Positions 13,107 to 44,806 of a stretch of DNA of 64,000 nucleotides are shown in pieces; within the stretch, counting starts at the first letter, position 1, and every line of letters begins with the position of its first letter. Origin of the DNA: a virus. Below the pieces are notes generated by a model. That model searched no databases. It was not told where the DNA came from and saw only the letters and a program-made list of their open reading frames with translations. The position numbers and the translations under genes are program-made. The stretch covers positions 59,979 to 123,978 of the IMG/VR virus record IMGVR_UViG_3300020435_000116. The stretch is one strand, 5' to 3'.

Positions 13107-13586
13107 TTATTCCTCTATATCTCTAAAGTAATCACGCAGCTCCATGAGCATACGTCCTAAATGGTTGCTACCTTCCCCGGTGCGCATACACACGCCCCAG
13201 TATTTATCACCATGCCAATTCCCTTCGACTAGTTCTCGGTCACCAGTAGCAAGTAGCTTTTCTTTTAAATGGGGATTAAAGGTGAATTTTGCATATAACA
13301 CATCCCACATACATGCTTGTCTGATATCATCCCAATTGTCTACGATGTCGATAGATCGTCCATAGCGCTTAACTTCACCGGGTTTATATAGACTTGCAAT
13401 ATATCTGCGAATCTCTTCATTATCAGTCTTACAGGCTACGTAAGCGTGTTCAGAGGTCGCAAAGTAAAACAGGGGATGTGAGCGTGTTTTAAATATAGCG
13501 TTCTCAGGAAGCGGGGTTTCTAATATGTAAAAGTTACTTAAGAACGAATATTCGCCCCTAAACATCGTTATAGCTTCAGCGCCCAT
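13107..13586 (-). CDS. NADAR (YbiA-like) ADP-ribose-family protein
   Basis: A 159-residue NADAR-superfamily protein. It shows the family blocks FRGEYSFLSNFY, SEHAYVACK, GNWHGDKYWGVC and SNHLGRMLMELRD in the correct order. NADAR proteins hydrolyse N-glycosidic bonds of ADP-ribose-type compounds, and some remove ADP-ribose from guanine bases in DNA, acting as antitoxins to DarT1. The start is placed at ATG 13586 after AAGGAGAG; the frame is open a further 20 codons but that part overlaps an unrelated leader. It is the first gene of the thymidylate operon. In a phage it may act in NAD metabolism or undo host ADP-ribosylation. Confidence 0.85.
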   Translation of the reverse strand: MGAEAITMFRGEYSFLSNFYILETPLPENAIFKTRSHPLFYFATSEHAYVACKTDNEEIRRYIASLYKPGEVKRYGRSIDIVDNWDDIRQACMWDVLYAKFTFNPHLKEKLLATGDRELVEGNWHGDKYWGVCMRTGEGSNHLGRMLMELRDYFRDIEE

Positions 13587-13638
13587 AGTCACTCTCCTTA
13601 GTATTATAAGATCCCTAAGGGCTGTTAAATACAACATT

Positions 13639-13670
13639 GACGGCAAAAAAAGAAGGGCGTTAACCCTTCT
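13639..13670 (-). terminator. Rho-independent terminator with GCCGTC tail
   Basis: Leftward AGAAGGG / CCCTTCT stem, then TTTTTTGCCGTC, directly after the stop of the gene at 13674. Confidence 0.8.
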
Positions 13671-13673
13671 TAT

Positions 13674-13967
13674 TTATTCAAAGTCTACTTTAGGTAGAGG
13701 TCGCATCCATTCTAATAAATGCTTGTCTATCTCAAACTTATCGTTAATTCTACCACGATTAGTGTCATCCTCGTAGCGAATAACTTTAACATGGCGTTTA
13801 GTTTGATACGCTTTGACCAGTGCGGGATTAAAGACGTTGGTGTTCCATTCCTGGTACGTCATGCTGGTATCTTTTAGGATACGCATGTCGGCGATAACTG
13901 GTGTGCATTTTTTATAGTACTCGTACGCCACCCACAATAATGCCACTAATAAAAGAAGTTTAAACAT
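13674..13967 (-). CDS. Small membrane-anchored protein
   Basis: A 97-residue protein with one N-terminal hydrophobic segment (MFKLLLLVALLWVAYEYY) and a charged, probably cytoplasmic or periplasmic, remainder. It overlaps the previous gene by eight bases. Function unknown. Confidence 0.62.
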   Translation of the reverse strand: MFKLLLLVALLWVAYEYYKKCTPVIADMRILKDTSMTYQEWNTNVFNPALVKAYQTKRHVKVIRYEDDTNRGRINDKFEIDKHLLEWMRPLPKVDFE

Positions 13968-14169
13968 TAGAACATTCCTCGTTACTATTAAAGGGTAAAG
14001 GCACTTCTACTTTTCGTGTTGCTTCAAGTTCATATTTGAAACTAAAGCCTTTGATTGACAATTTGGTTTGGTAGTCATATTCGCCTGTCTCTATGGCGTC
14101 TGCTAGACTACGAAGACGTGCTGCCACATCTTTGGCCTTGTCTTCTATGTTAAATGTTGAATCAGACAT
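13960..14169 (-). CDS. Small hypothetical protein
   Basis: A 69-residue protein: a helical N-terminal half (AKDVAARLRSLADAIETGEY) followed by alternating charged/hydrophobic strands. No family recognised. It overlaps its downstream neighbour, suggesting coupled translation. Confidence 0.58.
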   Translation of the reverse strand: MSDSTFNIEDKAKDVAARLRSLADAIETGEYDYQTKLSIKGFSFKYELEATRKVEVPLPFNSNEECSNV

Positions 14170-14177
14170 AAGGTTTC

Positions 14178-14690
14178 CTATTGTAACAAGCTAACTAAAT
14201 TAGCCAAAATGTGATTAAGTGTTCGGCCGTCGTTGTCTTGTTTAATCCAAGCAGCCATATCTTTTAAACTATCAAATACAGGGGACTTTGGTGTACCTAA
14301 TGTAGTAGTATCATAGAGACAATACGATGTAGCTTCAAAGGCAGTGTAACCTTGAGTTGCATGCGTTGGATCAATTAAACCGTCTTCACAGGGTATAAAG
14401 GGAGCACCCATCCAATATAGCAGCCCGTCGATAGTAGCAAACCCTTCTTTTGCTCGACTCTTATATAGCATAATTTTATAATTGTGCTTTTCTACTAACA
14501 AACCATCGAATAAAGGAATATAGTTTCCTTCATTATCTTTTGGATGTTTCCAATCTGGCGGTACACGTCGTACTTCAACTTGGCTAGTTTTTCGTGGTAC
14601 TATACCCTGACCCTTGGTCTCAGGTTTAAGATAGTGTGGCTTCTTACAGTCACCCGTATCAAAATCTATAAACGGTGTTAGTTTATTCAT
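14178..14690 (-). CDS. Hypothetical protein
   Basis: A 170-residue protein with no recognised motif. It is the first gene of a three-gene unit ending at the terminator 13639-13670. Function unknown. Confidence 0.58.
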   Translation of the reverse strand: MNKLTPFIDFDTGDCKKPHYLKPETKGQGIVPRKTSQVEVRRVPPDWKHPKDNEGNYIPLFDGLLVEKHNYKIMLYKSRAKEGFATIDGLLYWMGAPFIPCEDGLIDPTHATQGYTAFEATSYCLYDTTTLGTPKSPVFDSLKDMAAWIKQDNDGRTLNHILANLVSLLQ

Positions 14691-14714
14691 AAACCATTTC
14701 TCTATTTAAATTCA

Positions 14715-14744
14715 GGCATAAGGGGAGGGCCGAAGCCCTCCCTA
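14715..14744 (-). terminator. Hairpin terminator with TTATGCC tail
   Basis: Leftward GGGAGGG-CTTCGG-CCCTCCC with a stable tetraloop-type hairpin, then CTTATGCC, immediately after the endonuclease I stop. Confidence 0.78.
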
Positions 14745-14745
14745 A

Positions 14746-15519
14746 TTATTCACATTCACCTACGTAGTGGTTACCACTACCTTGTTTTTCACAGATACGC
14801 TGATTACGTAAACGCTCATCATCACTCACGGGGTCTTTTAAATCCCAATAATAGAGATGCATGAGTTCTTTATCGCTTATTACAATATCAAGTGGTAATG
14901 AGTAGGCATCTAACATATACAGAAAGATGCGGGCTACATCCCCACGCATAACGTCACGCACCTCTACATATTCTTGGTTGACTTCAACATCACAACTACC
15001 AAAGTCACGCCCCTCACCATGTATATTTGAAAACAACTTGTCTGAACGTAGGTTATTAAGCTCGCCAATGGCGGGCACTAGATTCACTAAGTCGTTTTGC
15101 GCCCGCTCGTAGATCATGTTAGTTTTCTCGCAACACGCTCTAGATGATAACAAATCCCCATCCGACTCATAACACGCAGGAATATCTTTACGTGTATCAC
15201 CCCAACACATTAACCCACCACCTAACATAACCGCAGGCATGGCATGTTCAGCTTCAATGCGGTTAGCGCGCGTGCCGTTTATATTAACAGGCTGATAGTC
15301 ACAGTCTGAATAATCCACACTTTTATTATCTTTAAAAGCACACCCACAATAAAACGTCTGGTTCAATGGGGGTTTGTGGATGTCCTCTACCATCCATTTT
15401 ACACTGGTAGGGAATGACTTAGGAATGTCCGCTGCATAACCGGTACTTGCAGACATGATAATACCAATAGCAACGGTAGCTAGTAGTATGGTGAATAGTC
15501 CTACTGATTTTTGTTTCAT
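14746..15519 (-). CDS. endA: Secreted endonuclease I (EndA/Dns type)
   Basis: A 257-residue ββα-metal nuclease of the endonuclease I family, enzymes that in bacteria degrade double-stranded DNA in the periplasm or medium. It has a signal peptide (MKQKSVGLFTILL..., likely cut after STGYAA), the catalytic block RANRIEAEHAMPA with His92, NDLVNLVPAIGELNN, RGDVARIFLYM and a late RNQRICEKQGSGNHYVG. Eight or more cysteines fit the disulfide-bonded Vibrio Dns type. The start is set at ATG 15519 (AAAGGA upstream, ATGA overlap with the previous gene); upstream codons lack a signal. A nuclease destined for export is unusual for a phage. Confidence 0.9.
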   Translation of the reverse strand: MKQKSVGLFTILLATVAIGIIMSASTGYAADIPKSFPTSVKWMVEDIHKPPLNQTFYCGCAFKDNKSVDYSDCDYQPVNINGTRANRIEAEHAMPAVMLGGGLMCWGDTRKDIPACYESDGDLLSSRACCEKTNMIYERAQNDLVNLVPAIGELNNLRSDKLFSNIHGEGRDFGSCDVEVNQEYVEVRDVMRGDVARIFLYMLDAYSLPLDIVISDKELMHLYYWDLKDPVSDDERLRNQRICEKQGSGNHYVGECE

Positions 15520-16133
15520 TTTATTATATCCTTTAAAAGGGGTGAGCGTTTTAATAATTCTTGATATAGCACAGCAAACTTCGTTGCACGTTCCGCACAA
15601 GCCTTTAGTAAAGCGGACGATGGCTTACCTGTACAGACGTGTCGTTCGAGTATGAGGATGTTACCCAGTATTAATATATGGCGCAAATACCAATCTAATA
15701 CCCTATCCTGCAGCATCACGTTGAAGTTAATAACTGACTTCCTATTCCTAGCAAAGATACCACGACCTATTTTAACGGTAGGAATGCTATCTGGTAACAT
15801 TACAATTTCATTAACAAGATCTTGATATATGGCATTTTGCATAGCCGTGTATGGCAGGTGTTTAACTACAGCCATAGTTACACGCGCGGCAGGTTCACTT
15901 AGACCCAACGCGTTGATCTCAGCAGTATTAAAAACGTGTGTTAGTGTAACCGATGAGGTGTTGCGGAATTGGAAGTTTTCTAGTTGTCTGAGCGATGCTT
16001 CGTAAACGTTGTTGAATCCCTGGATGAAATTACTTGCTCGTCTGTCCAAAGACGGATCAAGAAACTGCTTTAAAAACATCCGGGCTTTGTTGGCTTCCTG
16101 CCTTACAGTTATTAAATTGGCATTGTTGCTCAT
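15516..16133 (-). CDS. Hypothetical protein
   Basis: A 205-residue basic helical protein with no recognised motif. Its stop overlaps the endonuclease I start (ATGA), so the two are co-translated; a functional link, such as protection or targeting, is possible but unproven. Confidence 0.6.
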   Translation of the reverse strand: MSNNANLITVRQEANKARMFLKQFLDPSLDRRASNFIQGFNNVYEASLRQLENFQFRNTSSVTLTHVFNTAEINALGLSEPAARVTMAVVKHLPYTAMQNAIYQDLVNEIVMLPDSIPTVKIGRGIFARNRKSVINFNVMLQDRVLDWYLRHILILGNILILERHVCTGKPSSALLKACAERATKFAVLYQELLKRSPLLKDIIK

Positions 16134-16142
16134 TACCTATCC

Positions 16143-16679
16143 TTATATGCAAACACTTTCTTTAATAAATGCCTTGCCGTTAATTAACCGGTAAAACGTT
16201 TTTGTAAGCGTAGGCGCGTACTGCCCCATGGCTTCTATCTCACACCACGATATAGTAGGGCGATCCCATATAGTAGTACGATGGATGTTCATTGCTTTTT
16301 CAATAGCAGTTAGGTCTATTGCGTGAGGGTCGTTATGCAATTGCTCGATCTCATCTAAATGAACATTAGTCAGCAAGTCTTCTTCATACAGACGACCTGA
16401 CATGATGTTAGTTAACGCAAGGATACGCAGTTGAGCATTGTCCAAGCGGTTTACACGACACACCCACTCCAGACATGCTGTAACGCACTCTGACGACACA
16501 TTCATGTCAATGCTGTACTGATCAACCAAGGCGGTAGGTAGACCCTTAGCTGGATGTAGTGCGCCTACAACTTGTTTAAAATGCGACAGATTAGTTAGGG
16601 TAATCAGACGCTTAGCGTTGTCAGCAACACGGTGTTTAGGAGAATGAAATACGGTATTTAAAGGGATTGAATTGTTCAT
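16143..16679 (-). CDS. Hypothetical protein
   Basis: A 178-residue helical protein, nine bases upstream of the next gene in the endonuclease I operon. No recognised domain. The ~95 bases upstream (16680-16776) contain a CGTGTT/AACACG hairpin. Confidence 0.58.
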   Translation of the reverse strand: MNNSIPLNTVFHSPKHRVADNAKRLITLTNLSHFKQVVGALHPAKGLPTALVDQYSIDMNVSSECVTACLEWVCRVNRLDNAQLRILALTNIMSGRLYEEDLLTNVHLDEIEQLHNDPHAIDLTAIEKAMNIHRTTIWDRPTISWCEIEAMGQYAPTLTKTFYRLINGKAFIKESVCI

Positions 16680-16776
16680 TGTAATAATCCATTAATTTAT
16701 TATTTTGGTTTAAAAGGTGTAAGCGTGTTTAAAGAACACGTCTCATAATAGTTTAAAGGCAGTGTGTATTTATATA

Positions 16777-17247
16777 CTAGCTGTCACCTGCCCTGATTAT
16801 TGGAGAGTCAGGTGCTTGTATTAGTTTTAAAAGCGCAGTTTGATTTACTGGTTTAATAATGCAAGGATGGGTGTTAATCCAGTTGATCATCTCCATGGTA
16901 AGTTTAAGATCACGCCTAAAGGGAAATCCATTTTTAGCGTGTAGAGGGTGATGCTGTCTATGTAGCCAGATAGCTTCACTACTTTTATCAAACCGTACAT
17001 CTAACCCATGGTGCGTCATAAGTCGCTCGATGGCATTCCAGGCTTTAAAGGGGCGAGGGAATTCGCCTTTTACTGCTTGGCGTCTAAAACTACGAGCAGT
17101 GGGTAAGTCGCTGTTGATATGGTTTACCATTAACGCATTAAAAGCCTTAACGGGTTCGGGTGACCCTTCAGCGATGTCTAACAACTGAGCTACCCGAGTT
17201 TGGTTTCTCTGATACGCTTTGACATCTAAGGGTTTCATTCTAGCCAT
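16777..17247 (-). CDS. Hypothetical basic protein
   Basis: A 156-residue protein rich in Arg, Lys and His (AIWLHRQHHPLHAKNGFPFRR). Its composition suggests nucleic acid contact, but no fold is recognised. Confidence 0.57.
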   Translation of the reverse strand: MARMKPLDVKAYQRNQTRVAQLLDIAEGSPEPVKAFNALMVNHINSDLPTARSFRRQAVKGEFPRPFKAWNAIERLMTHHGLDVRFDKSSEAIWLHRQHHPLHAKNGFPFRRDLKLTMEMINWINTHPCIIKPVNQTALLKLIQAPDSPIIRAGDS

Positions 17248-17261
17248 TTATTACTTGTCCT

Positions 17262-17813
17262 TTAAGTCTTGCTTGGTTTTTTAGTAAATGTAAAATCCGC
17301 GTTTTCTGACCACGCCTTCATGCCTTTATACGGACTGGTAGGCTGGTTAAAGATACCTTGATTGCTGTCAGTAGTATTATCGAGCTTATTTATAATCACA
17401 GAGCATTTAGTTTCATCAAGAACTAGAGTTAATGACGTTATGTATGGCATTAACGTTAACAACCAGAGACCTGACGTAGAATGAACAGACACCAGACAAT
17501 GTCCATTAACTACGACCGCGCAATGTATTCGCCTGAATACTGCGCTAAGATTAGATGTAAAAACCATCTTCCCGTTTGCATAATCAATCTCGTCATGGTC
17601 TACAAGTAATGATTCAATAAACACAGTTTTTGTTATAGCGTTTTCTAACTCATTCGCTAGGGCGATATAGTCATCTATAGTTCTTAATGGCTCACGTATA
17701 GACATGTCTAATTCATCAAGTTCTTTACTTAGACATTCAGTTAGTTTCGGCTTAGATATAACCTCAACGATTACGCCGCGCAACTGACATAATTTTTTAA
17801 TATCTTCTTTCAT
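17262..17813 (-). CDS. Hypothetical protein
   Basis: A 183-residue protein with no recognised motif; the N-terminal third is helical, the rest is strand-rich. It is the first gene of its unit after the terminator at 17839-17870. Confidence 0.57.
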   Translation of the reverse strand: MKEDIKKLCQLRGVIVEVISKPKLTECLSKELDELDMSIREPLRTIDDYIALANELENAITKTVFIESLLVDHDEIDYANGKMVFTSNLSAVFRRIHCAVVVNGHCLVSVHSTSGLWLLTLMPYITSLTLVLDETKCSVIINKLDNTTDSNQGIFNQPTSPYKGMKAWSENADFTFTKKPSKT

Positions 17814-17838
17814 GATTTTTTACCTTTAGTTTCCTTAA

Positions 17839-17870
17839 GGGCATAACGGGAAGACCCGAAAGTCTTCCCT
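17839..17870 (-). terminator. Hairpin terminator with TTATGCCC tail
   Basis: Leftward GGGAAGAC / GTCTTCCC stem followed by GTTATGCCC, nine bases after the stop of the 50-residue gene. Confidence 0.75.
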
Positions 17871-17878
17871 ATAGTTCT

Positions 17879-18031
17879 TTAGATTTTACATGCACCGCCT
17901 TCACAGCCATCGACATCGCCTTCCGTTAAAGCTTTCGCTTCTTCATCTTGCTCTGCCATACGTTCTGCATTTGCACGCTCTAGTGCTGCTTCGTCGATAT
18001 CAAAATCAAAATCATCAAAACCATCACTCAT
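17879..18031 (-). CDS. Small acidic protein with Cys tail
   Basis: A 50-residue protein with a strong ribosome binding site (AAGGAGA), its own promoter-like site and its own terminator, so it is a real monocistronic gene although very short. The N-terminus is extremely acidic (MSDGFDDFDFDIDEA), the middle is a charged helix and the end is CEGGACKI. Small acidic phage proteins often inhibit or mimic DNA binding of host enzymes; that is only a suggestion here. Confidence 0.72.
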   Translation of the reverse strand: MSDGFDDFDFDIDEAALERANAERMAEQDEEAKALTEGDVDGCEGGACKI

Positions 18032-18043
18032 GATAGTCTCCTT

Positions 18044-18059
18044 TTAGTAATGTAGGTGT
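18044..18059 (-). promoter_or_regulatory. Putative phage early-type promoter
   Basis: Leftward ACCTACATTACTA, another match to the recurring site, 14 bases upstream of the 50-residue gene's start. Very close spacing leaves only a short leader. Confidence 0.5.
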
Positions 18060-18064
18060 TTAGG

Positions 18065-19501
18065 TTAATCGGTTTTATCACGCTCTACCCAAACGGTAAT
18101 AACCGCGTTTCTTAAATGACGGTGTTCGGTAGGTCCAGGTTCTATAGCGGTAGAGTCCTGGTCGATACGCTGTAATGTGCCGTAAAGTTTAGCCACGTTA
18201 CCATCTAAGATGTAGAGTAGCAGTACAGGCATACCAGGATACACCTGGTCAATATCTGCATTCTCCCAACGTATTTGAACATGAGAGCCTACTTGTCTAG
18301 ATAGCCTGCTGTTTTCAACAAACGCGTTATGCGTAATGGCATCTTTACTTAACTTAAGGAAGTTAGTATGGATACGACTCTCTACCGCAGCTTGGACTTC
18401 ATGGTCTTCGTCATTAATGGTGGTTACGTTAGCACTGGTAGTACTGAACACATCCATAACCTTGTCTGCATTGACGTGGTAATAGGCATTACCATCATTC
18501 ATCTGACGACGCTCACTATGGTCTTTCTGCACCACATCCCCTGTAGCCAACATATAAACCTTACCGTAATGTTTAATGGGGTCGTTGACCTTATATGTCT
18601 TTTCTACCCCAGGCATTCGATTAGCAGGCAAGTTAGCTATAGTGAGAGTTTGTTCAACACTGTCATAACGACGTGTATGATAGGCGGGAAAGATAAACCA
18701 TATAGTCTTTTGGAAGAAATACCCCATCCCCGTCTTATAAACACCATAAGTTTTCTGCAGATAATTAGGCAAGTCAACCAACCGCGTACCGTGAGGTATA
18801 ACGATGTGGTCATAGACACGCGTATTGTCTGGTTCTATGATGTGTGCGCCACTTACAAGGTTTTTAAGACGCCATTCAAGATAATCCTCAGAGGTTACCG
18901 TTAACGAGCTAGGGGGTGTTTCAGGACGCTGTACGTTAGCGAAGAATAGCGTAAGTATCTGCTTTACCGTGCAGTCTTTAAAGATCCCACCTACCTCTAC
19001 AACACGAAACTCATCAACAATCTGCTCGATAAGTTGTAACTCTACGTTAATAACATCTGAACGATCTCCGGTCTCCTGGTCTGATGTTGCTTCGGTAGAT
19101 GCCACGACTGACGGGGACTGGTCCCCTACGATGATGCATTGATAATCCCACGACTCCTCAGCGCTATCTGTTACAATTTTACCGTTAGCTGCCGTCAATA
19201 CCAACTGTCGATAAAGCTTAGCGGTGAGTCCTTGTTTATTAGGATAGATGGCGTGGGCGTATGTGCCCACACCTAATACCGCTTCAACAATAAGGGATTC
19301 ACTAAACTCGTTTTGAAAGTCACGCTGTACATCAACGGCGACTACTTTAATCGCCTCGTAAGGCGTATCACCAACGTAAAGTTCTAAACGATAACGATAG
19401 TGTTTATCGGGGCGCTTGCGCTCGTCCACGTCGTCATACTGCGTGGTAATGACATCAATGACATCGTTATAAAGCGCCGTTTCATCTACTAATCCCGCCA
19501 T
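18065..19501 (-). CDS. Virion structural protein, possible baseplate hub
   Basis: A 478-residue beta-rich protein in the tail/baseplate gene block. Its layout (an N-terminal domain, a central block VKQILTLFFANVQ and YLQKTYGVYKTGMGYFF, and a C-terminal DVYPGMP-like loop) is reminiscent of contractile-tail hub proteins (gp27/gpD type), but no motif proves it. It overlaps the next upstream gene by 13 bases. It is the last gene of a four-gene run. Confidence 0.5.
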   Translation of the reverse strand: MAGLVDETALYNDVIDVITTQYDDVDERKRPDKHYRYRLELYVGDTPYEAIKVVAVDVQRDFQNEFSESLIVEAVLGVGTYAHAIYPNKQGLTAKLYRQLVLTAANGKIVTDSAEESWDYQCIIVGDQSPSVVASTEATSDQETGDRSDVINVELQLIEQIVDEFRVVEVGGIFKDCTVKQILTLFFANVQRPETPPSSLTVTSEDYLEWRLKNLVSGAHIIEPDNTRVYDHIVIPHGTRLVDLPNYLQKTYGVYKTGMGYFFQKTIWFIFPAYHTRRYDSVEQTLTIANLPANRMPGVEKTYKVNDPIKHYGKVYMLATGDVVQKDHSERRQMNDGNAYYHVNADKVMDVFSTTSANVTTINDEDHEVQAAVESRIHTNFLKLSKDAITHNAFVENSRLSRQVGSHVQIRWENADIDQVYPGMPVLLLYILDGNVAKLYGTLQRIDQDSTAIEPGPTEHRHLRNAVITVWVERDKTD

Positions 19502-20055
19502 CGTCTTATATCCCTAAGTTCGCCAACATCCGCTATCATATCGGTGATGGGGTGTTTGTGATCCTTAGCTACACTGTCCTTAACAAGTTTCTGAGGGGTA
19601 GCCATTGGTGACATATTCAATAGTTTCTGTACTAACTTAGGTACAGACGTATCAGATACCATGCGAATACGTGCACTCTTATAGATCATTGCCGCCAATG
19701 CATCTAGCTGACGTAGGTCATCTTTAGGGGGTCGACGAATGTTAACACGATTATTGATCGCGTCCACCCAGTCGCTTAAGTGACCGACAATGATGTCATA
19801 GGCGCGTTGTGCGTCTTCACCGTTAATGAAACTGAAGCTCCCACCCATCTCTACGATTTCTACCATCTTAGAAATGGTTACCATGCGACGGCATTCTTGT
19901 TGGGCAAGTTGTTGGTCTTCTGCCATATTACCGGTTGAAAAAGTACCGACTTCTCTTGCTTCAACTTCAGACACCATATACATGTTAGCTACCCAGATGG
20001 TAAAGGGATAGTTAAACAGTTTAAATGCATTAGAGTGTTTGGGTTTACTAGCCAT
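19489..20055 (-). CDS. Probable virion-associated protein
   Basis: A 188-residue helical protein in the tail gene run, overlapping its downstream neighbour and two bases from its upstream one. No motif recognised; assignment to the virion is from position. Confidence 0.5.
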   Translation of the reverse strand: MASKPKHSNAFKLFNYPFTIWVANMYMVSEVEAREVGTFSTGNMAEDQQLAQQECRRMVTISKMVEIVEMGGSFSFINGEDAQRAYDIIVGHLSDWVDAINNRVNIRRPPKDDLRQLDALAAMIYKSARIRMVSDTSVPKLVQKLLNMSPMATPQKLVKDSVAKDHKHPITDMIADVGELRDIRRWRD

Positions 20056-20057
20056 GG

Positions 20058-21428: not shown

Positions 21429-21437
21429 AGTTTACTC

Positions 21438-22973: not shown

Positions 22974-23038
22974 GATATCATTCCATGGTTAATACTAATC
23001 ATAATTAATGGGCTGGTAATTATATTCATACCATCCCC

Positions 23039-23079
23039 GACGGCATAAGTAGGGATGGGGCCCCTACGACCCCATCCCT
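23039..23079 (-). terminator. Hairpin terminator with TTATGCCGTC tail
   Basis: Leftward GGGATGGGG / CCCCATCCC long stem, then ACTTATGCCGTC. It ends a ~250-base leftward unit that starts below another terminator at 23332-23363. Confidence 0.78.
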
Positions 23080-23080
23080 C

Positions 23081-23278
23081 TCAGCGACCACACTGGTGGT
23101 CAACAGCTACAGGTGTGACGGTCTGTCCAGGAACCGTACAGTGGTAGGGAAAATCAGGTAAAAAACCTACCAGAGAACACCGTGCCATGATGGTGCGTTG
23201 GAAAAGAGGCGTGTAGGTAAATAGCCCAACCCAAAACCTACACCCTGTTATCAATTGCGAATTGGCAGGAAGACACAT
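23081..23278 (-). CDS. Possible small Cys-rich protein
   Basis: A 65-codon frame (starting MCLPANSQLITGC) with five cysteines, lying between two strong terminators. No good ribosome binding site precedes the ATG at 23278 or the internal ATG at 23188, so the unit might instead be a non-coding RNA. The stop codon abuts the downstream terminator, which favours a gene. The wider stretch 22974-23410 contains nothing else I can assign. Confidence 0.35.
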   Translation of the reverse strand: MCLPANSQLITGCRFWVGLFTYTPLFQRTIMARCSLVGFLPDFPYHCTVPGQTVTPVAVDHQCGR

Positions 23279-23331
23279 GTTACGTCAACAACCCGCGTGA
23301 TAACCAATGACCGCATATCCCATCATACATA

Positions 23332-34008: not shown

Positions 34009-34011
34009 AGT

Positions 34012-34452: not shown

Positions 34453-34462
34453 GTTGGGGTCC

Positions 34463-35764: not shown

Positions 35765-35765
35765 G

Positions 35766-37145: not shown

Positions 37146-37211
37146 TCCTATATTTTATTAATAACACGTCATAGAAATAGTATAGCCGTGTTAATTAAGG
37201 AGCCTTCACCC

Positions 37212-39125
37212 ATGGGTATAACAAAAGACGATATTGCTGGAATTGAGTGTATTCACGCTAATTATTTTGTTAATCAACACACACGTCGCGATGACTTGGT
37301 GTTAGTAAAAGAACGTGTACATTTAAAAGATGGCAGACGCATATCGCGCATGGTACCGAAGATTAATGTAAAGAAAGCCTTCTATATTACACGAGAGGGC
37401 TATCAGACACATCACGAGAAAAAAGAATGGGAAGAGCGTAACCGTGTCCAGCGTTACGAGTCTACTCAAGTACTGCTAGCTGATAAAGTCGCGATGGCGT
37501 TGGGTAGAACGCCAGGTATGGGACATCTGGGTATGTTGAACCAAAGCCCGTATGTTTACGGTACGGATATCATGCCTACTGTGTTAGTAAAACACAAATA
37601 CATGAAAGACTACCCAGAGTATAACGATGCGCGTTATGACGCTGACAACGCGGTACTGGATTTAGAAACCAATACTGTTTTTGATCATCTACATCCAGAT
37701 GACAAAGCCATGTGTCTTAAGTATGACGATAAGATAGGTGAAGTACAGCGTCGTATGGATTTCATGCGTATGCAGCTTGAAGAAGCTAATAAAGATAAGA
37801 AAGGGGCTAAGCAGGCCAAACGTATCAGCGAGCAGTTAAAACTAGCACGTGATGAAATTGTTAGCTTACAGGCAGAGCGCAAACCTTACGAACAGCCTAT
37901 TATATCTGGTTCATTAACCATGAAAGATAAAGTGTTCATTGCAGTGACTAAACGCTTCGCTGACAGAATACAAGGAGATGCGGTTTCTATCGTGGACGGG
38001 TTGTTTGATCTTTATTTGGAAAAATATAAGAAAGAACGCAACATCAAGTTAGAAATTGAAGTTGTTGATAATGACTTTGGTGTAACAAAAGCGCTATTAG
38101 ATAGGGCACATGCGTGGCGTCCTGATTTTATCTTAATATGGAACATGAACTTTGATATTCCAAAGATGATAGAGTCGTGCAAGCGTCACAATCAAGATCC
38201 TGCATACGTCTTCAGTGATCCTAAGATCCCACCTGAGTACAAATACTTTAAGTATAAAGAAGGGCAATTACAGAAGACCAAGGCGGATGGTAAGACCTAC
38301 TCGCAGCACGTTGCAGATTTATGGCATAGCGTCATAGCACCTGCTAGCTTTTACTTTATTGACTCTATGTGTCTTTATAAGAAACTACGTGTAACCGAAG
38401 CCCAACAACCATCTTATAGCTTAGATGCTATCTTAGGTAGGCATCTGAACTTATCTAAATTGAAGTTTGAAGAAGCTGATGCATACAAAGGTTTAGAATG
38501 GCATCAATTCATGCAGACTAACTACCCTGCTGAATACCTTATCTATAACGCCTTTGACTGCATTGCCGTTGAGTTGCTAGATGAGGACCAGACTGATATT
38601 AAGAAGATGCGCATCTTGCTAGGTCACTCTGATATTATTAAGTTTCCTTCTACTCCTAGACGTTTGGCTGATGATTTACATTTCGTCTGTGAAGAAGAAG
38701 AGAACAAGGTAATGGGTTCAACGAGTAATGAGATGGTAGCTGAGGTAGATCATCTACTACCCTCACTACAAGGATGGATCTGTACCCTACCTAGTCATTT
38801 GATTCACAAGCGTGGTCTTAACCTTATAGAAGAAGACCCGTCCATTGAAACAGGGTTATCTGTTGCAGTATCTGACTTAGACGTTGCAGCAGGTTATCCA
38901 AACATCGGCATCATTACTAACGCCTCACGTGAGACTACTATCTTAGAGTTTTGTCGTATACAAGGTAAGAGTGAAGATGTATATAGACGTGCTGCTATTA
39001 ACATGACGGCTGCTCAGACTAATGCAGTAGAGGTGTGTAGGGAAGTGTTATCCATGCCGAGTATGAATACGCTACTTGCTGAATTTACCAAAGAGAAAGG
39101 GATTGAACATCCTGTAAACAGATAA
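37212..39125 (+). CDS. Family B DNA polymerase, N-terminal/exonuclease part
   Basis: A 637-residue protein carrying the N-terminal and 3'-5' proofreading domains of a family B DNA polymerase: Exo I DLETN, Exo II LIWNMNFDIPKM, Exo III YNAFDCIAVEL, and then polymerase motif A as VSDLDVAAGYPN near residue 565. It ends about 70 residues later, before motif B (KxxxNSxYG) and motif C (DTD), which are absent, and a strong terminator follows. The polymerase must therefore be split, the rest being encoded elsewhere. The start is ATG 37212 after TAAGGAG instead of an upstream GTG at 37188. Confidence 0.85.
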   Translation: MGITKDDIAGIECIHANYFVNQHTRRDDLVLVKERVHLKDGRRISRMVPKINVKKAFYITREGYQTHHEKKEWEERNRVQRYESTQVLLADKVAMALGRTPGMGHLGMLNQSPYVYGTDIMPTVLVKHKYMKDYPEYNDARYDADNAVLDLETNTVFDHLHPDDKAMCLKYDDKIGEVQRRMDFMRMQLEEANKDKKGAKQAKRISEQLKLARDEIVSLQAERKPYEQPIISGSLTMKDKVFIAVTKRFADRIQGDAVSIVDGLFDLYLEKYKKERNIKLEIEVVDNDFGVTKALLDRAHAWRPDFILIWNMNFDIPKMIESCKRHNQDPAYVFSDPKIPPEYKYFKYKEGQLQKTKADGKTYSQHVADLWHSVIAPASFYFIDSMCLYKKLRVTEAQQPSYSLDAILGRHLNLSKLKFEEADAYKGLEWHQFMQTNYPAEYLIYNAFDCIAVELLDEDQTDIKKMRILLGHSDIIKFPSTPRRLADDLHFVCEEEENKVMGSTSNEMVAEVDHLLPSLQGWICTLPSHLIHKRGLNLIEEDPSIETGLSVAVSDLDVAAGYPNIGIITNASRETTILEFCRIQGKSEDVYRRAAINMTAAQTNAVEVCREVLSMPSMNTLLAEFTKEKGIEHPVNR

Positions 39126-39178
39126 AAAAAGAAAGGGCATAGCCTACCTCTACCTATCGCGGGTAGAGGTAGGGTTTT
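39126..39178. terminator. Bidirectional rho-independent terminator
   Basis: CCTACCTCTACC / GGTAGAGGTAGG stem between the polymerase gene and the convergent gene ending at 39190. Rightward it runs into GTTTTTATGC; leftward into CCCTTTCTTTTTTT. Confidence 0.85.
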
Positions 39179-39189
39179 TATGCGTTACT

Positions 39190-39471
39190 TTAATTTGTAT
39201 CTTTTACACTAGTGAAGATGTATTCAACACAAGCTTCTTTAATGGCAGGTGCCATCCAATCGGGGACAACCATGAATACACCGTTTCCAAATAACTTTGG
39301 ATATCCAGGACCATCGGCCTCGCCGTTCCACCGCACGCCCATTGTCTTAGACCAGTTACCGTCATCGTGACGATACTCACCTTCTACCACGCTAAAATTA
39401 TCGTCATCAAAGACGACAGTGGCATTTCTCCAACGCTTAGCGCGTTCTACTACTTCTTTTGCTGATGGCAT
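39190..39471 (-). CDS. Small hypothetical protein
   Basis: A 93-residue protein (VVERAKRWRNATVVFDDD at the start) with an alternating strand pattern. No recognised domain. Last gene of a leftward trio. Confidence 0.55.
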   Translation of the reverse strand: MPSAKEVVERAKRWRNATVVFDDDNFSVVEGEYRHDDGNWSKTMGVRWNGEADGPGYPKLFGNGVFMVVPDWMAPAIKEACVEYIFTSVKDTN

Positions 39472-39515
39472 ATTATAGATTCCTCAAATATATACACATG
39501 GTTACAAAAAGGTTA

Positions 39516-40004
39516 TTAGTCTAGTGGGATGATTACCGTAATAGCATCATCAGGTATATCCCAACTACCAAAAACCAGGGTTTCTCCGGTATTAGGTATA
39601 AGATCAGCACCTGTTATCTCATAATAGCTATTGAAGGTATCAATAACGAGTTCTCTACCTTCAACCCACCCATAGCCTATTGTTAGCATCAGGGACGTAA
39701 AGTCAGAATTATAAAGCCCTATTACACCTTTTACAAATGATAACAACTCTTTATCAGTGAGATCGGTTTTGTCTTTCATTAAAGCTGCTATATCCAGACA
39801 GTCTAAAGCTGAAAGCTTAAAGGGCTTGGTAGTTTTCTTATCGATGGATCTTTCATAGACGCAATGGATAAAGAACGGAACCGGACTGGCTAGGTTATCG
39901 TGAAGTGATCCTAGGTCCATTGCCAGCTCTTTCTTTCTACCGACGTTACTTACCTCATCGGGGTTATGGTTTTTTCCCGTAATGTCAACTATGTGGTTAT
40001 CCAT
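39516..40004 (-). CDS. Hypothetical protein
   Basis: A 162-residue protein, acidic and beta-rich at its C-terminus, 15 bases downstream of the gene at 40020. No recognised domain. Confidence 0.55.
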   Translation of the reverse strand: MDNHIVDITGKNHNPDEVSNVGRKKELAMDLGSLHDNLASPVPFFIHCVYERSIDKKTTKPFKLSALDCLDIAALMKDKTDLTDKELLSFVKGVIGLYNSDFTSLMLTIGYGWVEGRELVIDTFNSYYEITGADLIPNTGETLVFGSWDIPDDAITVIIPLD

Positions 40005-40019
40005 TAACAGTCCTTCGAT

Positions 40020-40397
40020 TTATTGATTAAAAGATAATGCATGGATAATAGATTCACATGCTTGTTGCTCGCCAATCCCCTCATCCACCGCTTGGACAAT
40101 GCGATCAATTAACTGCTGTTCGATATCAGACATATAACCCGCGCGTTCAGTGACAGCGCCAGGCTGATTACCTAACTCGATTAACCCACGTTTAAGGATA
40201 CAAGTATAGCGGTCAAAGAAAGCAACGGCTAGGGTAGCGTATGGGTGACCTATACTTTGGAAAATAGAGCGTAAACCTTCAAGACGTGTATGTACCATGG
40301 AATGGACTTCACCAGCATCAATTAACGCCTGGCCAATTTTATATTTAACCCAGTAGTTATTGTGGTATTGATTTAAAACGTCTAGTTTGTTTTTCAT
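40020..40397 (-). CDS. Hypothetical protein
   Basis: A 125-residue helical protein, the first gene after a strong promoter-like site at 40456-40471, so probably expressed early. No recognised domain. Confidence 0.58.
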   Translation of the reverse strand: MKNKLDVLNQYHNNYWVKYKIGQALIDAGEVHSMVHTRLEGLRSIFQSIGHPYATLAVAFFDRYTCILKRGLIELGNQPGAVTERAGYMSDIEQQLIDRIVQAVDEGIGEQQACESIIHALSFNQ

Positions 40398-40455
40398 TAG
40401 TTAATTCTCTTATATTAGTTATTTAGCGCTACTCAATAAGGGCATTGAGTCACAA

Positions 40456-40471
40456 TAGTAATATAGGTCTA
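40456..40471 (-). promoter_or_regulatory. Putative phage early promoter
   Basis: Leftward ACCTATATTACTA contains the complete phiKZ early promoter core TATATTAC. It lies between the terminator at 40492-40534 and the gene starting at 40397. Confidence 0.65.
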
Positions 40472-40491
40472 TAAACTTTTACTATCATCTA

Positions 40492-40534
40492 GACGGCATA
40501 AAACCACGACCAGCCTGGAGGGACTGGTCGTGGA
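40492..40534 (-). terminator. Rho-independent terminator with TTATGCCGTC tail
   Basis: Leftward CCACGACCAG / CTGGTCGTGG ten-base-pair stem, then TTTTATGCCGTC. It ends the gene at 40561. Confidence 0.88.
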
Positions 40535-40560
40535 GTGGGGCGCATGTGCGCAAAGGTTAA

Positions 40561-41325
40561 TTACTTCCCAAAGAAAGCAATCAACTTCTGCTCTTTTTCG
40601 CCGTTACGAAGTGTAGAGGCAACCAGTTCAAGGTCAGTCTGCTTAAGCGCTTGTTCACGGGTGGCTGGGTCGCATACCGTGATGAAAAGGTTAAGTAGAC
40701 GCTCAAAACACTTACGATCTTGACCAGAAAGTTTAACTTGGTCAATGAAGCGATATAAACGTTTTTCGTGGAACGCGCTATCACGGTTTTCGTTGATGAT
40801 AGCAAGTACGCTGTTAAGGCTGGCGTATAGTTCTTTACCGTCCAAGGTTAAGATGCGCTGGATAGCACGGTATAGAAGCAATTGCTGCTGAGAGCCTTCT
40901 AGTGCCGACATTGGTCGACCCTTAGCCATTTTCTCAGCATAGGTAGCAACAGTCGCCACAGCGCCTTCTGCTTGCGCTGACAGACCTTCAGGCATGGTAA
41001 ATCTAGCTTTGTCTTCAGCTTTGTCTTCAGACTGTTGATCTTTAGCTTGGTCATCCTGAGATGCTTCAGGTTGAGTCTCGCCTTTATCAGCGCCGTCAGA
41101 TTCTTCACCCTCACCGGCCTCTGGTGTCTGCGCACCTTGAACTTCCGTAGAACCTTCAACTACCGCCGGATCGACTGGCTTGTCGTCAGCTTGCTGTTGT
41201 TTTGCTTCTGCTTCTTTAGCAGCCTCTACCTTTTCTTGTTCTGCTTTAGATGGAGCAGGAGCTGCCGTTGTCTTCTTAGCAGCGCCACGGCGTGATGATT
41301 GGCGCTTAGTTTTTTGGTCAGTCAT
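40561..41325 (-). CDS. Protein with long disordered Ala/Glu/Lys-rich N-terminus
   Basis: A 254-residue protein. Residues 1-15 are basic (TKRQSSRRGAAKKTT), residues 16-110 are low-complexity and acidic (Ala/Glu/Gln/Asp/Lys), and residues 110-254 form a helical domain ending LIAFFGK. The tripartite plan suggests a nucleic-acid-associated or scaffolding protein, but no family is recognised. Monocistronic, with a good terminator. Confidence 0.6.
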   Translation of the reverse strand: MTDQKTKRQSSRRGAAKKTTAAPAPSKAEQEKVEAAKEAEAKQQQADDKPVDPAVVEGSTEVQGAQTPEAGEGEESDGADKGETQPEASQDDQAKDQQSEDKAEDKARFTMPEGLSAQAEGAVATVATYAEKMAKGRPMSALEGSQQQLLLYRAIQRILTLDGKELYASLNSVLAIINENRDSAFHEKRLYRFIDQVKLSGQDRKCFERLLNLFITVCDPATREQALKQTDLELVASTLRNGEKEQKLIAFFGK

Positions 41326-41428
41326 ATTTCTTTCACCTTGTTAGATGGGATGGATGAAGTTGTGCATAGAATAGACAATAAGTCATTTATTCGTACACGA
41401 CTTGGTTGGTTTAAACTCAATCATACTA

Positions 41429-41944
41429 TCAGACTACAGGGTACTCTTTAATGCGCCCATCTATAACACGTGTTTGCACGCTAGCATCTAGACTCTTATA
41501 CGGATAGCGCATCTGTGTATGTTTAACTAAAAAGTAATTAGCAATACCCTCACCTAAGCTGTCGTATGGCATAAAGGACATATGCATTTGCTTAACGGTT
41601 TGTTCTTTAACGGGCTTATCTACGGTGTAGCCATACATCTTTTTATGGTCATCAGTTCCTTCTGGTATAAGCGTGTCGTAGTAATAACCATCTACGCCAA
41701 AATAGGCGTGTTGTGAGTTTTCAAAGAACGATATATTGTAACCTGCACGCTTTAGACGTATGCCTATAGCTAGCGCCGCTAATCCACAATCCCCTGAATT
41801 GATAAGTTCCAATGTACTTTGTATTTCCACCGGGTGTCTGCTAATAGCTTCTACTAGACGCTTAGAATGCCTAAGCGTCTTATCTTGCACATCCATCAGC
41901 TGTTTATAGTCTTGTATGAATGCGTTGATAGTATCTTTAATCAT
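41429..41944 (-). CDS. Putative papain-like cysteine peptidase
   Basis: A 171-residue protein with an ordered Cys-His-Asp set: INSGDCGLAALAIG (Cys53), SQHAYFGVDG (His79) and YYYDT (Asp90). This spacing is typical of small papain/NlpC-like peptidases and related transferases in phages. No signal peptide, so it would act in the cytoplasm. Substrate unknown; a structural rather than enzymatic fold relative cannot be excluded. Confidence 0.6.
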   Translation of the reverse strand: MIKDTINAFIQDYKQLMDVQDKTLRHSKRLVEAISRHPVEIQSTLELINSGDCGLAALAIGIRLKRAGYNISFFENSQHAYFGVDGYYYDTLIPEGTDDHKKMYGYTVDKPVKEQTVKQMHMSFMPYDSLGEGIANYFLVKHTQMRYPYKSLDASVQTRVIDGRIKEYPVV

Positions 41945-42004
41945 GTTATTCTACTTTGTAATCACTTATCACTGTCTATGTAATTAAGAGATAATGTTTT
42001 CTCT

Positions 42005-42034
42005 GACGGCATAAAAGGAGGCCGAAGCCTCCTA
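42005..42034 (-). terminator. Rho-independent terminator with TTATGCCGTC tail
   Basis: Leftward AGGAGGC-TTCG-GCCTCCT stem, then TTTATGCCGTC. It overlaps the last bases of the transglycosylase gene. Confidence 0.85.
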
Positions 42035-42763
42035 ATAACTGATAGGGTCAGGCACCCCTAATTCCTTTCTAAAACCATCAATTAATATTACATAACTAAT
42101 AGTCTCTTTAGAGTGCTTACCGGTTATTTGCGGTAAGCACTTGATAATGTCATTGTAACCACTTGGATTACCACATGCCTTTTGTGCATTAAGTACATGA
42201 CCACAACCAGCATTATAACACGCCTGGGCTAACCATATCCTGTCTAACTGAGGGCGGGGTGACGTCCAGAAGTTATAGCGGGTATTCATATACCACGCAC
42301 CAGCTTCGATGTTAGTACGTGCATCCCACACATCCCTACCTTGTTTAACAGATTCGGGAACCCCATCAAACGTCCCTGGCATAAACTGACACACACCGCC
42401 AGCCCCGACCGGACTAACCGCTTTAGGATTAAAACGACTCTCCTGCCAACATTGAGCTTTGAGCCAACGCCAGTCTATCTGAGGCATATGCCAGCTCATG
42501 GCTGATTTAAAGAAAAGATCGTATTTAATAGATTGCAAACCCTTTAACTTGCTGGCATCTACTACTTGGTACGTGTTCTCTTTAATCTCATCCTTTTCTT
42601 CCGCAATAGGATCGGGTTCTTCAACAGGCTCTTCGACCTCAACAACCTCCACCTCTTCAACTATCTCCACAGGTAAAGGCTCGGTCTTATCTGTATCAGG
42701 GGGTGGGATAGATTCCCCACACCCCCATAGAAGGATAACAAGTATAATGGTCAAATAACGCAT
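42032..42763 (-). CDS. Lipoprotein lytic transglycosylase (SLT)
   Basis: A 243-residue cell-wall enzyme. A signal peptide ends in a lipobox (LLWGC, Cys15), so it should be lipid-anchored. An acidic Pro/Glu/Val-rich linker (residues 25-60) leads to a lysozyme-like SLT domain with the catalytic glutamate in CWQESRFNP (Glu108), GAGGVCQFMPGTF and AQACYNAGCGHV. These enzymes cleave peptidoglycan to 1,6-anhydro products. With the small membrane protein just upstream it probably forms part of the lysis module. Strong ribosome binding site GGAGG. Confidence 0.88.
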   Translation of the reverse strand: MRYLTIILVILLWGCGESIPPPDTDKTEPLPVEIVEEVEVVEVEEPVEEPDPIAEEKDEIKENTYQVVDASKLKGLQSIKYDLFFKSAMSWHMPQIDWRWLKAQCWQESRFNPKAVSPVGAGGVCQFMPGTFDGVPESVKQGRDVWDARTNIEAGAWYMNTRYNFWTSPRPQLDRIWLAQACYNAGCGHVLNAQKACGNPSGYNDIIKCLPQITGKHSKETISYVILIDGFRKELGVPDPISY

Positions 42764-42772
42764 GGTGACCTC

Positions 42773-43003
42773 CTATACTAGGGCAAAGCATCCCAGTAAC
42801 ATAATGGCAAACGCAATCATCCGCGTATTCCAATAACTCACTTTTGCTTTATCATCTTCGATCAAATCCCACTCTTCTTTGAACCTAATGTCCAATAATT
42901 TATCTGCAATACGTAAAGACGTAAACCAAAAGATCAACACTAACGCTGCTGCGATAAGTTTCTTACTGATAGCAAACAAAATAGGATATAGAAATGCTTC
43001 CAT
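42773..43003 (-). CDS. Small two-segment membrane protein, possible holin
   Basis: A 76-residue protein with an N-terminal hydrophobic segment (LIAAALVLIFWFTSL) and a C-terminal one (MIAFAIMLLGCFALV) separated by a charged loop. It is nine bases upstream of the lipoprotein transglycosylase gene and shares its transcript. Size, topology and position fit a class II holin, but holins are too diverse to name from sequence. Confidence 0.55.
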   Translation of the reverse strand: MEAFLYPILFAISKKLIAAALVLIFWFTSLRIADKLLDIRFKEEWDLIEDDKAKVSYWNTRMIAFAIMLLGCFALV

Positions 43004-43026
43004 AATAGTACTCCGGTAGATTAAAA

Positions 43027-44325
43027 CTAGGCTAATGATTTTTGACAGTATGACATTAGAGCATACATGGATCTTACACCATGACCTATAAGTGATACAT
43101 ACGGTTTGTCTAATCTCACGGCTTGAAATCTTACTACGTTTCTAATGAACTCAGAAACAGACTGACGCGTTTCATCTTCTTCATCAGTAATGATACCTAC
43201 CGCTTTATTACCTGTTCTAATGAGATCTTCTTTACATTTCTCAATCTCATCAAACTGCTCGTAGTAGATTTCAAATGAGTCCAATATCGCTAGGCAGTTT
43301 CTACACACCTCAATTACTTGATCGTCGGTGAGCGCATCTATCTCCGCAGCGTCACCTGAAGTATTAGCTGTCTTACTATAGACATCTACATGCGTACTTG
43401 ACAGATGCGCTGTACCTAGACGCGAGTAGTTGATCACTGTAGGGAGGTTTTTCAACATTGCGGCGTGAGCTGGCTCCTTATTAAAACGTGGGTAACGCAT
43501 TAAGGGATAACGACCTCCTACTACTGGAACAGCTCTAGGGGAAAAAGTTAAATGGCTATCGCTGGTAATCCCGCGTATTTTAAGCGACTCGTGCCAGATC
43601 CCATTAGGTGGATTAGATTCACCTACGTCAGGTGCAATATGACACGTAGTCCATAGCGATTTAATCATGTCTCTTAATTCACTATACCCCGCGTCACCGT
43701 ACTCACCAATGCCTTTATTGAAAACAATGGGAATGTTCTTAAGGATATTAGAGGTATTCTCAACGCTGCTAAGTACAGATGGGAAATCCACTTCAAAACA
43801 ATCACGCATAATGACAACGGTATTGTTAAAGTCTTTTAACAATTGATCACGAGTGATAGTATCACCACCTAGGTAGTTTAATTCATCACGTAAAGACACG
43901 ACTTCGTTGTAGCGGCGATCACGGTCTAGTTTACTGACAGATTCGATTAACTTACGCAAGTTAGGTATAGCCAGTGCTATTTTCTTAGCCCAAAGTTTTA
44001 CTTTCTTCATCCCCTCCACAATGTATTTAACGATACCTTTCCAAAGGGATTTAACTTGATTACGTATACTTTCAACACTCACTGTCTCTTCGGTTATACC
44101 TAGTGAGCGAAAATACTCTAAGTGTTCTGCCGATACAGTTGTTTCATTGTTTTCTTCTAAAGCAGTAACCGTTCTATCTAATAGAACTAATCGATCGAAG
44201 TGATCGGTAATGGTTTTAAAGAAACCCTCAACGTCTAACGTCAGGCGTTCCACAGAGACCATAATAGTATCTAATTCGATGATCTCTACCATCCTTGCCG
44301 CTACAGCTGGGTTTAAAATAGACAC
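43027..44325 (-). CDS. Internal head-type protein, paralog E
   Basis: A 432-residue helical protein. After VSVE (Glu85) it has SIRNQVKSLWKGIVKYIVEGMKKVKLW, matching the helical block of paralogs A, B and D. It lacks the AAGLE block. It starts with GTG after TAAGGAG. It heads the operon with the small membrane protein and transglycosylase, suggesting all three are late genes. Confidence 0.6.
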   Translation of the reverse strand: MSILNPAVAARMVEIIELDTIMVSVERLTLDVEGFFKTITDHFDRLVLLDRTVTALEENNETTVSAEHLEYFRSLGITEETVSVESIRNQVKSLWKGIVKYIVEGMKKVKLWAKKIALAIPNLRKLIESVSKLDRDRRYNEVVSLRDELNYLGGDTITRDQLLKDFNNTVVIMRDCFEVDFPSVLSSVENTSNILKNIPIVFNKGIGEYGDAGYSELRDMIKSLWTTCHIAPDVGESNPPNGIWHESLKIRGITSDSHLTFSPRAVPVVGGRYPLMRYPRFNKEPAHAAMLKNLPTVINYSRLGTAHLSSTHVDVYSKTANTSGDAAEIDALTDDQVIEVCRNCLAILDSFEIYYEQFDEIEKCKEDLIRTGNKAVGIITDEEDETRQSVSEFIRNVVRFQAVRLDKPYVSLIGHGVRSMYALMSYCQKSLA

Positions 44326-44353
44326 AGCGTGCTCCTTATATTCTGTTAATTGA

Positions 44354-44806
44354 TCATAAACATACCGTGACTTTTAAATCGACCCCTTCTACTATATCAG
44401 GATCAAAGACCTCTCTAAATAACTCAATCACATCATGTTTATTTAAATTACCCTTACCACATCCTAATAAAGGAAAGCCGATATGTCTCACACCTAAACG
44501 TGGGAGATTATCTAGGCAGGCATAAAGTCCCCTAGATATCCATTCTAACTTAGAGTCATTACGCCATCTGTCTTTAGTTGCAAAGCACAATACGTTTTTA
44601 TATGGATGACGATAAAGCCAACTATGACCTGGGTTGAGTTTACGCTCGCCACACAAATAGTGGTATTGATTAAACAGATCATCTGGGTATTTGAATTTAA
44701 ACGCTAACGCTAATCCATTCCCCATGGTCCCGTCACAGTTCACAGGACAGACTATGGTGTCTGCTTCTAATTGAAATAAATCTGCATGTACAAATTCTAA
44801 TATCAT
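44354..44806 (-). CDS. Macrodomain protein (DarG-like ADP-ribosylhydrolase)
   Basis: A 150-residue single macrodomain. It shows the ADP-ribose loop VNCDGTMGNGLALAFKFKYP and the second loop FPLLGCGKGNLN, in the form found in DarG antitoxins and Appr-1''-p processing enzymes. DarG-type macrodomains remove ADP-ribose from thymine bases in DNA, cancelling the DarT2 toxin, a known anti-phage defence. It is a stand-alone domain with no DarG C-terminal part. A site like TCTATAATTACG lies between it and the terminator upstream. General ADP-ribose or phosphate hydrolysis is the alternative. Confidence 0.87.
   Translation of the reverse strand: MILEFVHADLFQLEADTIVCPVNCDGTMGNGLALAFKFKYPDDLFNQYHYLCGERKLNPGHSWLYRHPYKNVLCFATKDRWRNDSKLEWISRGLYACLDNLPRLGVRHIGFPLLGCGKGNLNKHDVIELFREVFDPDIVEGVDLKVTVCL

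What the first reader, a model, noticed from the sequence alone, without database searches (positions are those of the whole stretch)
13107..44806. Two complementary ADP-ribose erasers in one phage
NADAR (guanine-linked) and DarG-like macrodomain (thymine-linked) together would cover both known chemistries of DarT-type DNA modification. Their joint presence suggests a two-part counter-defence that, to my knowledge, is not a recognised pair.
Basis: inference. Interest (0 to 1): 0.72.

Follow-up and report, generated by a model that had tools for sequence, protein, structure and literature searches.

The report
Two unlinked phage ADP-ribose erasers
This phiKZ-like jumbo phage does carry two different enzymes that can strip ADP-ribose tags, but they were inherited separately, do not travel together in related phages, and their joint occurrence in large phages was already published, so this is a new example of something known rather than a new two-part weapon.

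Summary
Both genes are real. The NADAR (start corrected to ATG 13586; 13586-13107, minus strand) and the macrodomain (44806-44354, minus strand) each clear Pfam cut-offs and keep catalytic residues. The macrodomain is DarG-type: nearest solved structures are DarG macrodomains, Lys78/Trp81 match DarG Lys80/Trp83, and DarG's DarT-binding C-terminus is absent. The NADAR is YbiA-type (Glu141), not the Asp-type of DarT1 operons.

The pairing claim fails. In 29 phiKZ-like phages, macro occurs in 22, NADAR in 4, both in 2; adding the window gives odds ratio 0.38, one-sided p 0.93. The macro is widespread in this lineage and sits near a phiKZ gp077-like gene in five genomes. The NADARs were acquired at least twice; here NADAR heads a thymidylate-synthase operon 31 kb away. 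The macro's recurrent partner is a SLOG domain, fused or adjacent in three phages; this contig has a SLOG gene too. Iyer et al. [quoted passage not shown]

Best reading: two independently inherited ADP-ribosyl hydrolases in a broader ADP-ribose-clearing kit. Substrates in vivo are undetermined.

The parts
13107..13586 (-). NADAR-domain protein (159 aa from ATG 13586). Equivalents of the published NADAR active site: Glu66, Lys73, Lys93, Arg97, Glu141, Asp147, Trp150 in the 179-aa numbering (subtract 20 for the 159-aa form)
   Evidence: PF08719 97.9 bits; phrog_1017; YbiA 2b3w and NADAR 8bau alignments; residues; start and ribosome-binding site
12226..13104 (-). Thymidylate synthase, start codon 2 bases after the NADAR stop: NADAR is the first gene of a probable nucleotide-metabolism operon
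   Evidence: PF00303 238.7 bits; sequence
11387..12004 (-). dCTP deaminase-like protein downstream of thymidylate synthase, same strand
   Evidence: PF22769 97.7 bits
13650..13671 (-). Intrinsic terminator-like hairpin plus T-run just upstream of NADAR, separating it from the preceding genes
   Evidence: 12 found against 4.4 expected in the region; sequence
44354..44806 (-). DarG-type macrodomain, stand-alone (150 aa), no DarT-binding C-terminal domain. Asn23, Lys78, Trp81 correspond to DarG Asn22, Lys80, Trp83
   Evidence: PF01661 42.3 bits; NF048014 DarG 110.8 bits over residues 4-134 of a 338-position model; 5m3i/5m31; alignment of phiKZ-like macros
44885..45301 (-). Small ORF between the macro gene and the phiKZ gp077-like gene
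   Evidence: phrog_12109; same position in FLC9 and Goslar
45361..46917 (-). phiKZ gp077-like protein, syntenic anchor of the macro gene
   Evidence: phrog_4585; tblastn to phiKZ gp077 and relatives
43027..44325 (-). phiKZ-like internal head protein, directly downstream of the macro gene
   Evidence: PF12699 35.2 bits

Best explanation
The phage carries two independently inherited ADP-ribosyl hydrolases. The macrodomain is a widespread, probably ancestral gene of phiKZ-like phages. By homology to DarG/TARG1 its Lys78 would attack C1'' of ADP-ribose on a pyrimidine base (thymine in DNA, possibly uracil in RNA) and free the base. The NADAR is a sporadic, separately acquired YbiA-type enzyme that would cleave the N-glycosidic bond to guanine (or a related small molecule), using Glu66, Lys73 and Glu141. 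Their chemistries can be complementary, but they are not an evolved pair. With a SLOG protein also encoded here they form part of a general kit that clears ADP-ribose derivatives and tags during infection. Shown: presence, family, residues, synteny, lack of detectable association. Inferred: enzymatic activity, substrates, counter-defence role.
For: Family and residue evidence. Macro in 22 of 29 phiKZ-like phages, NADAR in 4, both in 2; Fisher one-sided p 0.93 with the window added. Macro near the gp077-like gene in the window, FLC9, Goslar, LucasX and DT01. Window NADAR 43% identical to that of pir03 but 22-29% to those of FLC9, Eowyn and SNUABM_54, which are 38-41% identical to each other. 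Macro-SLOG fusion in Proteus phage 10, adjacency in SA002 and Deimos-Minion, and a SLOG gene in this contig. [quoted passage not shown] Knock-down of the phiKZ macro protein (PHIKZ104) weakly lowered ChmA without changing CFU/PFU (PMC12571901), which fits a conditional role.
Against: No biochemical data on either protein. The association test is small, partly chosen on macro (W01-W07) or NADAR (W18) hits, and not corrected for phylogeny. A division of labour between two chemistries could be selected even if the genes are inherited separately. The macro deviates from DarG at Lys29 (Asn30 here), Gln34 (Ala35) and Thr20 (Pro21); K29E reduced activity in DarG.
Confidence: 0.6

Rival explanations
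1. One reading: a dedicated two-part counter-defence in which NADAR reverses DarT1 (guanine) and the macrodomain reverses DarT2 (thymine) marks on phage DNA.
For: Family chemistry: NADARs reverse guanine-ADPr (PMC11543638, PMC11125620), DarG macrodomains reverse thymine-ADPr (PMC5179494). Catalytic residues intact. The NADAR has Lys93 at the position of E. coli C7 Lys115, a residue needed for DarT1 rescue, where E. coli YbiA has no Lys. The DarG macrodomain alone can act as antitoxin.
Against: No linkage or association. No DarT-binding domain on the macro. NADAR has Glu, not the Asp of DarT1-operon NADARs. Near-identical phages encode chimallin, whose nucleus excludes DNA-targeting defences (PMC11087766 abstract), which weakens the need for DNA erasers.
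Confidence: 0.1
2. Both enzymes, with the SLOG protein, process low-molecular-weight ADP-ribose derivatives (for example ADPr-1''-phosphate, cyclic ADPr variants) made by NAD-based immune systems.
For: Proposed for phage Macro/NADAR/SLOG in general by Iyer et al. 2022. Macro-SLOG fusion or adjacency in related phages and a SLOG gene here. NADAR in a nucleotide-metabolism operon.
Against: The macro matches DarG far better than the generic ADP-ribose-binding macro model (110.8 against 25.9 bits), and characterised DarG/TARG1-type enzymes act on base-linked or acyl-linked ADPr. No NAD-synthesis, Nudix, TIR or ART family appeared among the ORFs scanned, though the contig is incomplete.
Confidence: 0.23
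3. The NADAR acts in metabolism (RibX/YbiA-like N-glycosidase on riboflavin intermediates or another damaged nucleotide) and has nothing to do with ADP-ribosylation; only the macro is an ADPr eraser.
For: TIGR02464 (riboflavin intermediate N-glycosidase) is the best NCBIfam hit, 73.4 bits against a cut-off of 73.7. First gene before thymidylate synthase and a dCTP deaminase-like gene.
Against: It just misses the TIGR02464 cut-off. All tested NADARs, including YbiA and T4 phage NADAR, hydrolyse guanine-ADPr in vitro.
Confidence: 0.2

Closest known systems
DarG (DarTG2 antitoxin) macrodomain
   Same: Macrodomain closest by sequence (5m3i/5m31, NF048014, PADLOC DarG); Asn22, Lys80, Trp83 equivalents kept
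   Different: Stand-alone 150-aa protein, no C-terminal DarT-binding domain, no DarT gene found beside it; Lys29 and Gln34 equivalents changed
PHIKZ104 and macro proteins of phiKZ-like phages (phrog_335)
   Same: Same family and, in several phages, same gene neighbourhood; Lys78 equivalent conserved
   Different: About 23-37% identity to the window protein; some relatives carry a C-terminal extension or SLOG fusion
YbiA / NADAR YbiA subfamily
   Same: Glu in the last-strand catalytic position (Glu141), Glu66 and Lys73 motif, naked domain without extension
   Different: Lys93 present where E. coli YbiA lacks Lys; scores just below the TIGR02464 cut-off
DarT1-associated NADAR (DarG1)
   Same: NADAR fold, Glu/Lys motif, Lys at the C7 Lys115 position
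   Different: No Asp at the catalytic position that defines the BC4488 subfamily, no DarT1 gene found, no N-terminal DNA-binding extension evident
Orphan phage antitoxin-like enzymes against DarTG1 (Johannesman et al. 2025, Nat Commun 16:1598)
   Same: From own knowledge of the paper: phage NADAR-type enzymes that neutralise DarTG1
   Different: Paper not held here; only the citation was verified; relation to this NADAR not tested
Macro/NADAR/SLOG/Nudix ADP-ribose network of large DNA viruses (Iyer et al. 2022)
   Same: Same set of domains in one jumbo-phage genome
   Different: Here on separate, unlinked genes; no Nudix seen in the ORFs scanned

Membership tests
NADAR superfamily | Significant profile match over the domain | tested here: met
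   PF08719 97.9 bits, profile positions 9-162 of 163
NADAR superfamily | Conserved Glu and Lys (E88/K95 of E. coli C7 NADAR) | tested here: met
   Glu66 and Lys73, same spacing
NADAR, YbiA subfamily | Glu at the last-strand catalytic position (E125 of P. nicotianae NADAR) | tested here: met
   Glu141 in LVEGN
NADAR, DarT1-associated (BC4488) | Asp at the catalytic position and DarT1 neighbour | tested here: not met
   Glu not Asp; no DarT family in the ORFs scanned
NADAR superfamily | Hydrolysis of guanine-linked ADP-ribose | not testable with these tools
   Needs enzyme assay
DarG antitoxin | DarG-type macrodomain with catalytic Lys80 | tested here: met
   Lys78; NF048014 110.8 bits over residues 4-134
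DarG antitoxin | C-terminal DarT-binding domain | tested here: not met
   Protein ends at 150 aa; model is 338 positions; below the NF048014 cut-off of 250
DarG antitoxin | Operon with DarT | tested here: not met
   Neighbours are a phiKZ_IP protein and the gp077-like gene
DarG antitoxin | Hydrolysis of thymine-linked ADP-ribose | not testable with these tools
   Needs enzyme assay
Two-part NADAR plus macro module | The two genes co-occur more than by chance among related phages | tested here: not met
   Odds ratio 0.38, one-sided p 0.93 in 30 genomes; small, partly biased sample
Two-part NADAR plus macro module | Genomic linkage | tested here: not met
   About 31 kb apart, different operons

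The most novel reading that the evidence does not exclude
In nucleus-forming phages the DarG-type macrodomain is a general eraser of pyrimidine-base ADP-ribosylation on cytoplasmic phage RNA or freshly injected DNA, and lineages that also gain a NADAR extend this to guanine, giving broad protection against base-modifying ART defences.
Probability: 0.12. Interest if true: 0.55.

Novelty: new member of a known kind. Interest (0 to 1): 0.24.

Why it matters
The pair itself adds a new example to a published pattern. What is worth carrying forward is that a DarG-type macrodomain with an intact catalytic lysine occurs in most phiKZ-like jumbo phages sampled, including model phages (phiKZ gp104, Goslar gp083), so its substrate can be tested directly in a laboratory system.

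Tried and rejected
The search for related loci with alignments of the gp077-like protein and the major capsid protein failed because no stretch was conserved enough, so a large IMG/VR co-occurrence test was not possible; a hand-chosen set of 29 cultured phiKZ-like phages was used instead. Structure prediction of the macrodomain with only near-identical relatives gave pLDDT 44.6; it was not used and not searched. Johannesman et al. 2025 is not held. The listed TTG start of NADAR was rejected in favour of ATG 13586. phrog_335's label 'phosphatase' was rejected as an uninformative annotation of the macro family.

Full report
What is there. The window is the last 64 kb of a 123,978-base IMG/VR virus contig. 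It is a phiKZ-like jumbo phage: phiKZ major capsid protein at 406-2568 (658 bits) and several phiKZ internal head proteins. The phage-nucleus shell protein chimallin is not in this contig. It is found in four near-identical contigs, about 139-140 bits to phiKZ PhuN, including the 190-kb contig that carries the same two genes (query identified as PhuN/chimallin). The contig here probably stops short of the corresponding place (inference from the spacing in the 190-kb contig).

The NADAR. ORF 13107-13646 (minus) matches PF08719 with 97.9 bits. The TTG start is unlikely: AAGGAG stands just before ATG 13586. Aligned with E. coli YbiA and NADAR 8bau and with the residues reported in PMC11543638, Glu66, Lys73, Lys93, Arg97, Glu141, Asp147 and Trp150 are present (numbering of the 179-aa form). 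Glu141 puts it with the YbiA subfamily, not with the Asp-type DarT1-operon NADARs nor the His-type gp30.3 phage NADARs described in PMC11125620. Lys93 sits at the position of C7 Lys115, needed for DarT1 rescue but not for catalysis. A terminator-like hairpin (13671-13650) precedes the gene, and thymidylate synthase starts 2 bases after its stop, followed by a dCTP deaminase-like gene.

The macrodomain. ORF 44354-44806 (minus) matches PF01661 with 42.3 bits. At subfamily level it is DarG: NF048014 110.8 bits over residues 4-134, against 25.9 bits for the generic macro model; PADLOC DarG 116.3 bits; closest PDB chains are the DarG macrodomains 5m3i and 5m31, with TARG1 well behind. Lys78, Asn23 and Trp81 correspond to DarG Lys80, Asn22 and Trp83 (PMC5179494). 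In 19 macro sequences, one of them a truncated piece, Lys78 and Asn23 are at least 90% conserved. DarG's C-terminal DarT-binding domain is missing.

Are they a pair? I scanned 29 phiKZ-like phages for both families. Macro is present in 22 (three of them below Pfam's cut-off), NADAR in 4 (FLC9, Eowyn, pir03, SNUABM_54), both in 2. Adding the window gives 3 both, 20 macro only, 2 NADAR only, 5 neither: odds ratio 0.38, one-sided p 0.93. In the 21 phages not chosen by either gene, macro is in 15, NADAR in 1, both in 0. The sample is small, W01-W07 were picked by macro hits and W18 by a NADAR hit, and there is no correction for phylogeny; it shows absence of evidence for association, not proof of independence. 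The macro gene keeps its place beside or near a gp077-like gene in the window, FLC9, Goslar, LucasX and DT01, which points to vertical descent. The window NADAR is 43% identical to that of pir03 and up to 48% to NADARs of other phages, but only 22-29% to those of FLC9, Eowyn and SNUABM_54, so NADAR entered this lineage more than once.

A better partner. A SLOG (YAcAr, PF10686) gene lies in the same contig at C1:9727-10101. In Proteus phage 10 the macro and SLOG are one ORF; in SA002 and Deimos-Minion the SLOG is in the next gene. This matches the Macro/NADAR/SLOG/Nudix network of Iyer et al. 2022, who reported that these domains co-occur in DNA viruses more than by chance, that several viruses have tandem NADAR-Macro proteins, and who favoured low-molecular-weight ADPr derivatives as targets (PMC9503650). 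Jumbo-phage Macro and NADAR were also noted in 2021 (PMC7824862). The pair is therefore recognised.

How they probably work. By homology the macro would use Lys78 on ADP-ribose linked to a pyrimidine base; DarG and TARG1 also act on uracil-ADPr in RNA (PMC13036486). The NADAR would hydrolyse guanine-linked ADP-ribose in DNA or RNA (PMC11833690), or a small N-glycoside. Since the lineage encodes chimallin, and the nucleus excludes DNA-targeting host defences (PMC11087766 abstract), cytoplasmic RNA, newly injected DNA or small molecules are at least as likely targets as replicating phage DNA; this is inference. The one functional datum is the phiKZ macro protein PHIKZ104: its knock-down weakly lowered ChmA without a CFU/PFU effect, and the authors suggest a benefit in hosts with other defences (PMC12571901). 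Phage anti-DarT factors known from papers read here (AdfA, AdfB) are thought to act by binding DarT, not as erasers (PMC11481870).

Limits. No activity was measured. Not all ORFs of the contig were scanned against Pfam (large tail genes in L003 and the shortest ORFs were left out), and the contig is incomplete, so absence of DarT, ART, Nudix or NAD-synthesis genes is only provisional. The macrodomain model had pLDDT 44.6 and was discarded.

Noticed in passing
G000:C1:9727-10101 (within L002:9724-10101, minus), outside the window: SLOG (YAcAr, PF10686) protein in the same contig; SLOG domains are fused or adjacent to the macro gene in related phages
   Followed up: partly
window 8307-8954 (minus): C-terminal 57 residues match the CBASS inhibitor family Acb3 (PF25187, 51.7 bits); the N-terminal part does not match, so it may be a divergent or broken copy
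   Followed up: no
window 58985-59309 (minus): Group I intron (Rfam RF00028, 78.9 bits) next to a 412-aa ORF (59269-60507) with a DUF723 domain
   Followed up: partly
window 53514-56075 (minus): 853-aa protein matching terminase large subunit and helicase profiles with an internal LAGLIDADG domain (residues 349-403): a probable intein
   Followed up: partly
W03 (Burkholderia phage FLC9) and W04 (Klebsiella phage Eowyn): Two cultured phiKZ-like phages that also hold both a macro and a NADAR gene, the latter of a different NADAR clade
   Followed up: yes
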